A stretch of 59,077 bases of DNA from Bryobacterales bacterium. Its GTDB lineage: Bacteria > Acidobacteriota > Terriglobia > Bryobacterales > UBA6623. The notes below the pieces were generated by a model. That model was not told where the DNA came from and ran no database searches. It saw only the letters and a list, made by a program, of their open reading frames with translations. Where the stretch lies: the NCBI GenBank assembly GCA_026713545.1, contig JAPOOG010000009.1, forward strand, positions 1 to 59,077, written 5' to 3'. Shown here piece by piece: positions 36,777-40,434 of the stretch. Numbering within the stretch: the stretch's first letter is position 1; the number at the start of each line of letters is the position of its first letter. Made by a program: the position numbers and the translations under genes.

Positions 36777-38387
36777 TTAGAGCGTCAATACCTGGTGATC
36801 ATGACAGTCGGGTCTGACCGCCCTCCGCACCGACTCCACGAAGTCGGGACCGTGGCGCGCGTAGAACGACAGTGCTGAATACAGGCGCTCCTGGGGATGC
36901 CGCTCGGGATAGATCAAGTTGGTGAGATAGTCTGCGTCCCCCTGGGCACGTGCATCACGACGCAGGCCCTCTTGGGCTGCCTTGGAACGGATCTTGTTGA
37001 ACTGGTAGAGCATCTTCTTGCTGGTGTTTTCGAGCGCCTGCCCTAACGTAGTGTCGAAAGCCGCAAGTTCCCGATGCACCTCGGTCAAGGCCCTTTCGAT
37101 CCGGCTCTGGCCGGTCTCCATTTGTTGCTCCAAACCTGCGGGAACCAGACGCCGCGCAATCTTTCTACGCAAGTCTTCCGCTGTTTGCAAACAGTCGGTC
37201 GGGGAGAGTCGGTAGCGCTTGAGCAAACGTTCGGCTCTTGCATTGATGATGGTCAACGAGACCCGAGGCAACACGGCAGGCATCCGGCCCAACAGCCGGT
37301 CATAGAGGACTTCCGCCTGTGCCAGATAGGCGATCTCGGACGGTCCCGCGATGTAAACCGCCGTGGGCAGCAGGAAGTCCTGAGTCACCGGCCTCAGCAG
37401 GGCATTCGGGGAAAAGCATTGCGGTGCCTCCGCCAAGGTCTCGCGCATGCTGTCGACGGAACAGGCGCCCTCTTCATCTTGATAGCCCTGCGGCGTGCGC
37501 TTCAGAGCAATGCGGAGATCCTGCTCGATGCGAAACAGCAGCGAGGTCTCAGGAGCAACGCGCACCTGCGCGTGATAACCGGCGTCCACAAGAGCTTGGG
37601 ATCGCTCTGCGAGCGCCTCGTTCAACTCCGGTTCCTGCCTTAGCACGCTGTCGAACAGCGGCGCCGCTAGCCTGCGTATGGCCGGGTCCAACGGGTCCAG
37701 GAAGATCAGGCCTGCGTCGCGAAGCAACGAGTTGAGAAGACACCGGAAGCCGTCGCGGAAAGAAACGCCGGCAGGATATGCTCGTTCCGCCAGAACGAGG
37801 GCTTGGGAGCTAAAAGGTAGCTCGGCAAGGTGAGCGCGCAGCTCATCGAGAACGGTGTCCGCAAGGACTACGGTGCCTACCGGTTGGTTCTCGGAGTGCG
37901 GCGCTTTTCCTTGCAGCCTCGCCGGCAGAGTGCTCGTGTCGTGAACCCACGCATGGTCGACTTCGGCGAGATCGTGATCCTCCGTGGCTAACCAGAAGAC
38001 GGCAACCGCGGGCTGCCCGGCCTCTCGCAGCCTCCGGGCGTGTTCCAGAGCCGTAATCGCTTTGTAGAGTGTGAATACCGGGCCGGTATAGATCCCAACC
38101 TGTTGACCGGTCACCGCGACGATCGTATCCGAGCGGCTCAGCAGTTCGACATTCGATGCGGTTGCTTCCCCCATGCCGCTGTTCTGCTGCCGGAGAGCCG
38201 CAACCAGGTCCTGCCGATGTTGAGCCGGTAGGCTTGCTTGCCGGGCTGCTTGGTGAATCGCGTTCGTATCGGGTGGTTGTTGATAGAACGCTCGGACGCG
38301 GTCAAAGCGGTAAAGGTAATCCGTGAAGAGCGCCGTCGAGCCCGGCATCTGGGTCTGCTTCAGGCAGACACTTTCAAGGTCGCTCAA
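36777..38387 (-). CDS. bshC: Bacillithiol biosynthesis cysteine-adding enzyme BshC
   Basis: 536 residues from a TTG at MSDLESVCLKQTQMPGST; another in-frame TTG at 38468 would add 27 residues with no family match. The opening GSTALFTDYLYRFDRVRAFY, TGQQVGIYTGPVFTLYKAITALEHAR, VFWLATEDHDLAEV and YIAGPSEIAYLAQ are BshC signatures. It adds cysteine to glucosamine-malate to give bacillithiol. The C-terminal coiled coil is present. A bacillithiol-transferase-type DinB protein lies at 49720, so the thiol is probably both made and used. Confidence 0.92.
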   Translation of the reverse strand: MSDLESVCLKQTQMPGSTALFTDYLYRFDRVRAFYQQPPDTNAIHQAARQASLPAQHRQDLVAALRQQNSGMGEATASNVELLSRSDTIVAVTGQQVGIYTGPVFTLYKAITALEHARRLREAGQPAVAVFWLATEDHDLAEVDHAWVHDTSTLPARLQGKAPHSENQPVGTVVLADTVLDELRAHLAELPFSSQALVLAERAYPAGVSFRDGFRCLLNSLLRDAGLIFLDPLDPAIRRLAAPLFDSVLRQEPELNEALAERSQALVDAGYHAQVRVAPETSLLFRIEQDLRIALKRTPQGYQDEEGACSVDSMRETLAEAPQCFSPNALLRPVTQDFLLPTAVYIAGPSEIAYLAQAEVLYDRLLGRMPAVLPRVSLTIINARAERLLKRYRLSPTDCLQTAEDLRRKIARRLVPAGLEQQMETGQSRIERALTEVHRELAAFDTTLGQALENTSKKMLYQFNKIRSKAAQEGLRRDARAQGDADYLTNLIYPERHPQERLYSALSFYARHGPDFVESVRRAVRPDCHDHQVLTL

Positions 38388-38916
38388 TCTTCTTGCCCTG
38401 TTGGTCCGGAATTCGTTGCCGGAGCGCTTGGTAGCGGGTGGGGAGGGATGCTTGAATCGCCTTGCCAAGGCGTCACGAGCTTGATGCTACTCTCAGGATC
38501 AGAATAACAGATCGCATTGAGCCAACCCGCGACCAGGCCCGACCAGACTGGACCTCTGCTGTAATACTCTCAGAGCTGTTCCGATGAAGCCTCTGCAAGC
38601 TGCGTTGGGAACGAAGTCAACATGGTTTGGAGTACTGAGTGGATCTCGGTCCGCGCATTCAAGAACGAGAGTCTTGTTAAAGAAAACTCCTTGGCGTACA
38701 TCAGATATCGAAGGAGTTGTGAATCACTGGGAAAGCTCCCGCTTGACCTCCCGTCTCAGCCGTCAGGTGACGTGCCAGGCAGGCTAGAATCGAAATCTTG
38801 CCGCAAGTTCCTGGATGCTTCGGGAGCATGGGCACAGAATCTCCCGGAATGAACACCGGAACCGGAGTCTTCAGCGGGCCGTCCGTCTCTACAGGGCTTT
38901 CTCGAAGGAGCGTGGT
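38388..38916. other. Intergenic region without a recognised feature
   Basis: About 530 bases between bshC and the beta-barrel gene. Short open frames (for example 38622-38852, 76 codons) show no family and no RBS. I see no repeats shared with the other loci here. AAGGAG before 38917 is the only clear signal. Confidence 0.5.
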
Positions 38917-39645: not shown

Positions 39646-40434
39646 TTACGAATAACTGAGAACCGCGTCGGCTTCGCTGTCGAATGTCTCGAAAACCGTG
39701 TAGAGTTTGGTGATCTGGAGCAGGTCGTTGACCTTCTGCTGCAGGTTGATCAGCTTGAGGCCGGCGCCCTGGTTCGACGCTGTCGTGTAGCTCGACACCA
39801 ATTCGCCGAGACCGGAACTATCGATATAGCCGACGTCTCCGAGGTTCAGCAAGATCTTCTTCTGTCCTTTGCCGAGGACTTCCCGGACCGTGTCCCGGAG
39901 CGTGCCGGATCCTTCTCCGAGTGTAATGCGTCCGCTGAGGTCGATTACGGTTACGCCATCCACATCACGAACGTTCGTTGAAAGGCTCACTTCCTCCTCC
40001 TTGTGACTCCATTCTTGCGGTATCTTCTTGACCATCGCAACTTCGGTGCCCCGCGGCGACACGGGACGAAACGTGATTTCGTCCACGAACGCCCGCGAAA
40101 GCAACAGGCCCCGCCCGGAAGCCTTGAACAAGTTGTCGCCTTCCGTGGGGTCCGGGACCGAATCGGGATCGAATCCGTCCCCTTCGTCCCGAATTGTGAT
40201 GGACAGTTGAGATGGACTGGTGGCTACTGAAAAGTAGACTGACTTCTCCTTACTGTACCGGTTTCCATGAATGACTGCGTTCACGGTGATCTCACGAACC
40301 GCCATCGCAAGCTTTGCGATGACTTCTTCGCCAAGACCGTGATCCTGAGCCAGCGTCTTTACGATGATCTCCGCCGCGTCGACGCTCGATAGAGTACTAT
40401 CAAGCCTCAGGTTCAATTCTCGGCCTGCCGACAT
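39646..40434 (-). CDS. HATPase (RsbW-like anti-sigma kinase) fused to a STAS anti-anti-sigma domain
   Basis: 262 residues from the ATG at MSAGRELNLRLDS. Residues about 1-140 are an HATPase_c-type serine kinase (REITVNAVIHGNR N-box, RDEGDGFDPD G1, ASGRGLLLSRAFVD). About 149-262 are a STAS domain (VTVIDLSGRITLGEGS, ILLNLGDVGYIDSSGLGELV with the phosphorylatable serine). One reading frame covers both. At the join a GTG (39988-39990) is preceded by a perfect AAGGAGG with 5 nt spacing, in the same frame, so free STAS protein could be made too. Normally these two partners are separate genes in a partner-switching pathway that controls a sigma factor or other regulator. Confidence 0.85.
   Translation of the reverse strand: MSAGRELNLRLDSTLSSVDAAEIIVKTLAQDHGLGEEVIAKLAMAVREITVNAVIHGNRYSKEKSVYFSVATSPSQLSITIRDEGDGFDPDSVPDPTEGDNLFKASGRGLLLSRAFVDEITFRPVSPRGTEVAMVKKIPQEWSHKEEEVSLSTNVRDVDGVTVIDLSGRITLGEGSGTLRDTVREVLGKGQKKILLNLGDVGYIDSSGLGELVSSYTTASNQGAGLKLINLQQKVNDLLQITKLYTVFETFDSEADAVLSYS
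39988..40002 (-). promoter_or_regulatory. In-frame internal ribosome-binding site and GTG start
   Basis: On the minus strand AAGGAGG (40002 down to 39996), 5 nt spacer, GTG (39990-39988) start MSLSTNVRDVDGV. It would give a 114-residue STAS protein, matching the usual length of a free antagonist. Confidence 0.65.

What the first reader, a model, noticed from the sequence alone, without database searches (positions are those of the whole stretch)
39646..40434. HATPase-STAS fusion with strong in-frame internal start for the STAS domain
Kinase and antagonist of a partner-switching module normally are separate proteins whose binding is regulated by phosphorylation. Here one frame encodes both. 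A textbook ribosome-binding site and GTG lie exactly where a free STAS protein should start. The gene may give both a self-inhibited fusion and free antagonist, or the stop between two genes has been lost.
Basis: partly seen in the sequence, partly recalled or inferred. Interest (0 to 1): 0.6.

Follow-up and report, generated by a model that had tools for sequence, protein, structure and literature searches.

The report
Kinase–antagonist fusion with internal start
In this acidobacterium two normally separate partner proteins of a regulatory switch are read as one protein, yet the second partner keeps its own strong translation start inside the gene, so the gene probably makes both the fusion and the free second partner, an arrangement that arose at least three times.

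Summary
Confirmed, on the minus strand: ATG 40434 to stop 39646 encodes one 262-aa protein, HATPase_c_2 (RsbW/SpoIIAB-like kinase) plus STAS (RsbV/SpoIIAA-like antagonist), with AAGGAGG-5 nt-GTG at the joint (39988-40002). The site is not chance. In 100 related pairs the two are separate adjacent genes, and the STAS gene starts at this very position behind a strong Shine-Dalgarno (SD). The one-frame state is derived: the three genomes of the window's genus, one of another genus, and four genera of another family. A tree forces at least three changes. All eight fused genes keep ATG or GTG at the homologous codon; six of seven non-redundant ones have strong SD pairing, against 3 of 87 other in-frame ATG/GTG codons in the same genes (Fisher p 7e-7), although the linkers differ. 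Best reading: one mRNA gives a weakly initiated kinase-antagonist fusion and abundant free antagonist, and no free kinase. Expression, cis-phosphorylation and the target are untested. HATPase-STAS fusions (Rv1364c, SipA) and internal starts (SctQ) are known separately; I found no report of the combination in a partner-switching pair. New variant of a known kind.

The parts
39646..40434 (-). Single open frame of 262 aa: HATPase (RsbW/SpoIIAB-like kinase) fused to STAS (RsbV/SpoIIAA-like antagonist)
40027..40395 (-). HATPase_c_2 domain; N-box E48/N52, D83-x-G85-x-G87 and S106-G-R-G109 invariant in 50 aligned relatives (G87 nearly so)
39664..39975 (-). STAS domain; D205-S206-S207-G208 phosphorylation motif invariant in 50 relatives
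39996..40002 (-). Internal Shine-Dalgarno AAGGAGG; anti-SD pairing -11.4 to -12.1 kcal/mol depending on the stretch used
39988..39990 (-). Internal GTG start (codon 149), homologous to the start codon of the separate STAS gene in relatives
39646..39990 (-). Predicted free STAS antagonist, 114 aa
   Evidence: the product itself is inferred
40432..40434 (-). ATG start of the fusion, weak SD pairing (-3.3 kcal/mol)

Best explanation
An ancestral two-gene partner-switching operon (rsbW-like then rsbV-like) became one reading frame through loss of the stop and frame separation between the genes, while the downstream gene's own ribosome-binding site and start codon stayed in use. One mRNA therefore gives (a) a weakly initiated kinase-antagonist fusion, which takes the place of the free kinase, and (b) free antagonist in excess from the internal GTG. 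Shown: the frame, the two domains with intact motifs, the ancestry, the recurrence, and retention of the start signals in all fused genes found. Inferred: that the internal start is used; that the kinase domain phosphorylates the tethered and the free STAS serine; that a SpoIIE-type phosphatase elsewhere in the genome reverses this; that the unphosphorylated tethered domain competes with the unknown target for the kinase domain.
For: Split pairs in 100 of 104 distinct loci; STAS gene start GTG 59, ATG 43, TTG 2 and an SD match of 6 nt or more in 85 of the 104. In 97 split pairs the STAS SD is stronger than the HATPase SD in 93 (medians -10.3 and -5.1 kcal/mol); the fused window gene keeps the same bias (-11.4 and -3.3). 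Fused frames: 3 genomes of genus g1 plus G002 and 4 genera of family f93. g1 and G002 fusions in one clade rejected, AU p 2.8e-6; at least 3 changes forced by well-supported branches on the wider tree, 6 most parsimonious. All 8 fused genes keep ATG/GTG at the homologous codon; SD pairing of -9 or stronger in 6 of 7 non-redundant ones against 3 of 87 control codons, p 7e-7. 17 identical nt AAGGAGGAGGAAGTGAG between G000 and G003, tied for the longest run in a gene 77.6% identical. Invariant catalytic and phosphosite motifs. Five SpoIIE matches in the genome.
Against: No expression data. The codon-level test within the genus alone is weak (p about 0.06). L163 has a weaker site (-6.6). Fusions of unknown age could keep the start signals as relics. 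The anti-SD of this organism's own 16S could not be checked (no match to the 16S 3' end). Relative domain orientation is undefined in the model (pTM 0.57).
Confidence: 0.75

Rival explanations
1. The gene makes only the fusion; the internal SD and GTG are an unused relic or a by-product of Lys-Glu codons, and the single protein works as a cis switch.
For: A kinase-STAS polypeptide that acts on itself is known: Rv1364c autophosphorylates and dephosphorylates its own STAS domain (PMC7693655, PMC10950880). The within-genus conservation test is only p about 0.06.
Against: Start codon kept in 8 of 8 and strong SD in 6 of 7 fused genes with unlike linkers. A different STAS fusion in the same genome (M20 peptidase-STAS, L155) has no ATG/GTG/TTG across its junction (residues 371-402).
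Confidence: 0.17
2. Both products are made, but the fusion is a near-neutral accident: free STAS from the internal start does the antagonist's work, and the STAS tail on the kinase has no role. (This is a sub-case of the dual-product reading, so its confidence overlaps with the best explanation.)
For: The STAS start is much stronger than the kinase start, and fusions are sporadic and recurrent.
Against: The frame has stayed open, with a linker of constant length, between species at 81% identity. Conservation of the STAS domain itself does not test the tail, since the same bases encode the free protein.
Confidence: 0.25
3. Assembly or sequencing error removed the stop.
For: The two named relatives in the genus are metagenome-assembled genomes.
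Against: The same open frame is in three genus members, one at 81% identity, and in other lineages, one of them an assembly of 3 contigs.
Confidence: 0.01

Closest known systems
RsbW-RsbV / SpoIIAB-SpoIIAA partner-switching pairs
   Same: Both domains and their motifs; the best fold matches are SpoIIAB and RsbW/RsbV complexes
   Different: One frame instead of two genes; no SigB/F/G-type sigma above cut-off in the genome
Rv1364c of M. tuberculosis (PAS-PP2C-HATPase-STAS)
   Same: Kinase followed by STAS in one polypeptide, acting on its own serine (PMC7693655, PMC10950880)
   Different: Carries its own sensor and phosphatase; the passages read mention no separately initiated STAS product (not tested here)
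SipA of Actinoplanes missouriensis (PMC10733313)
   Same: STAS and RsbW-like domains in one protein, and the two bind each other
   Different: Opposite order (STAS first); its partner is a sigma factor that itself carries a STAS domain
SctQ/YscQ type III secretion C-ring genes (PMC4295842)
   Same: An internal in-frame start yields the free C-terminal part besides the full protein, and both are needed
   Different: Unrelated protein; structural, not a kinase-substrate pair

Membership tests
RsbW/SpoIIAB kinase (anti-sigma type HATPase) | HATPase_c_2 fold with N-box Glu/Asn, DxGxG and GRG motifs | tested here: met
RsbW/SpoIIAB kinase (anti-sigma type HATPase) | Equivalog-level score for SpoIIAB or RsbW | tested here: not met
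   spIIAB 49.9 bits against cut-off 135; RsbW models 28.8 and 37 against 155 and 145. So it is a relative, not filed as RsbW or SpoIIAB itself
RsbW/SpoIIAB kinase (anti-sigma type HATPase) | Binds and inhibits a sigma factor | not testable with these tools
   No SigB/F/G sigma over cut-off; three RpoD-like and further sigma-70 family matches in the genome
RsbV/SpoIIAA-type antagonist (TIGR00377) | Superfamily score and phosphorylatable Ser in DSSG | tested here: met
   62.4 bits against 53.45; D205-S206-S207-G208 invariant
Dual-product gene with internal in-frame start | SD and start codon at the domain boundary, kept among relatives with the same frame | tested here: met
Dual-product gene with internal in-frame start | Two products detected | not testable with these tools
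   needs proteomics or tagging
Rv1364c-like autoregulating fusion | Sensor and PP2C phosphatase in the same chain | tested here: not met
   only HATPase and STAS domains found

The most novel reading that the evidence does not exclude
A recurrent design in which a kinase and its substrate-antagonist are fused while the antagonist is also made free from an internal start, so that no free kinase exists and translation sets the ratio of tethered to free antagonist: a partner switch with a built-in cis antagonist and a trans excess, with the tether functionally important.
Probability: 0.4. Interest if true: 0.6.

Novelty: new variant of a known kind. Interest (0 to 1): 0.5.

Why it matters
It shows how two genes of a dosage-sensitive switch can fuse without losing separate supply of the second protein: the old ribosome-binding site between the genes becomes linker codons and apparently stays in use. 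Repeated origins make it a natural test of what tethering does to partner switching, and a caution for annotation, since the second product is missed when only the long frame is called.

Tried and rejected
Assembly error (rejected: several genomes). Codon coincidence of Lys-Glu-Glu-Glu (rejected: homologous position in split genes; different linkers in other fused genes). A single old fusion (rejected for g1 and G002 together, AU p 2.8e-6). A neighbouring sigma or phosphatase gene as partner: none beside the gene in the window, and none among the neighbours sampled in four relatives apart from a response regulator in L094. Checking the anti-SD in the organism's own 16S: no match found. A first mixed alignment of separate domains (A2) was badly aligned and was dropped for A3. 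Literature on fused kinase-antagonist genes with internal starts: none found in the searches run, but most subscription papers are not held.

Full report
OBSERVATION. The minus-strand frame 40434..39646 encodes 262 aa with HATPase_c_2 (14-136) and STAS (154-257). At the joint AAGGAGG-AGGAA-GTG lies in frame, with GTG at 39990..39988. Among 38 long non-overlapping ORFs in the window it is the only internal AAGGAGG with proper spacing and an in-frame start, and among 590 internal ATG/GTG codons only 2 reach its pairing strength.

ANCESTRY. Searches of the family (18 genomes), order (257), class (399) and phylum (396) find relatives of the pair. The public records behind two relatives in the genus and behind G002 are titled Bryobacterales or Acidobacteria metagenome bins, so the window belongs to that group. 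In 100 of 104 distinct loci the two domains are separate adjacent genes with a short gap or a 4-nt overlap, and the STAS gene starts at the homologous position behind an SD. This sample over-represents pairs that lie in the same phase, because the protein search chains them. The window's AAGGAGG-GTG is therefore the old start of the downstream gene. A split relative of the same family, G001, has CAG TAA GGA GGA GTT GAA ATG where the window has CAC AAG GAG GAG GAA GTG; the change was a small rearrangement of frame and spacing, not only one lost stop.

RECURRENCE. The one-frame state occurs in the three genomes of the window's genus (the relatives at 99% and 81% identity), in G002 of another genus, and in four genera of family f93. 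In the class search 8 of the 58 genomes with a strong full-length match have no stop. On a tree of 36 pairs, g1 and G002 are not one clade (AU p 2.8e-6). On a tree of 44, well-supported branches force at least three changes and the fewest is six; branching inside f93 is poorly resolved, so gains and losses there cannot be told apart.

CONSERVATION OF THE INTERNAL START. This is the key test. The four f93 fusions are 52-60% identical to each other, with linkers unlike in sequence and length, yet each has ATG or GTG at the homologous codon: GGGGAGGAGCATAGC-ATG, CCAGGAGCACAGCAAA-GTG, ACAGGGGGACACAAA-ATG, CCAAGGAGGCTCAGAAC-ATG. G002 has AGGAGG-10-ATG. Over seven non-redundant fused genes, six sites pair at -9 kcal/mol or stronger, against 3 of 87 other in-frame ATG/GTG codons of the same genes (Fisher p 7e-7); ATG plus GTG make up 5.5% of codons there. 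Shared ancestry means the seven are not fully independent. Within the genus alone the evidence is weaker: a 17-nt identical run, tied for the longest, with p about 0.06 given the amino acids. As a contrast, another STAS fusion in the same genome (M20 peptidase-STAS) has no start codon across its junction.

DOSAGE. In 97 split pairs the antagonist's SD is stronger than the kinase's in 93. The fused gene keeps that bias (-3.3 for the fusion start, -11.4 for the internal start). This fits a need for antagonist in excess over kinase (inference). A fused frame leaves no route to free kinase short of proteolysis (inference).

MECHANISM. Kinase motifs (E48, N52, D83-G85-G87, SGRG) and the STAS DSSG motif are invariant or nearly so in 50 aligned relatives. 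Sequence and fold match SpoIIAB, SpoIIAA and the RsbV/RsbW complex. AlphaFold2 gives pLDDT 90.7 but pTM 0.57, with residues 141-150 the least certain: two well-folded domains on a loose joint. The genome also has two other HATPase-STAS sets that are split (contigs C5 and C49; on C49 a SpoIIE match lies beside the pair), five SpoIIE matches, three RpoD-like sigma factors and further sigma-70 family matches, and no SigB/F/G over cut-off. The target is unknown.

KNOWN OR NEW. HATPase-STAS fusion: Rv1364c (PMC7693655, PMC10950880) and SipA, in the other order (PMC10733313). Internal start giving a free C-terminal part: YscQ (PMC4295842). The combination in a kinase-antagonist pair, arising repeatedly with the start retained, was not found in the library searched. 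I file it as a new variant of a known kind.

Noticed in passing
L155:1486-2994 (-), own genome contig C87: A 503-aa frame joins an ArgE/DapE-type M20 deacylase (residues 20-379) to a C-terminal anti-sigma-antagonist STAS domain (393-496), with no start codon across the junction.
   Followed up: partly
L186 (G660 C43) and L187 (G672 C53): Two genomes of family f93 carry a split paralogue of the pair besides the fused copy.
   Followed up: partly
window 36777-38468 (-): BshC-type bacillithiol biosynthesis protein, both Pfam domains present.
   Followed up: no
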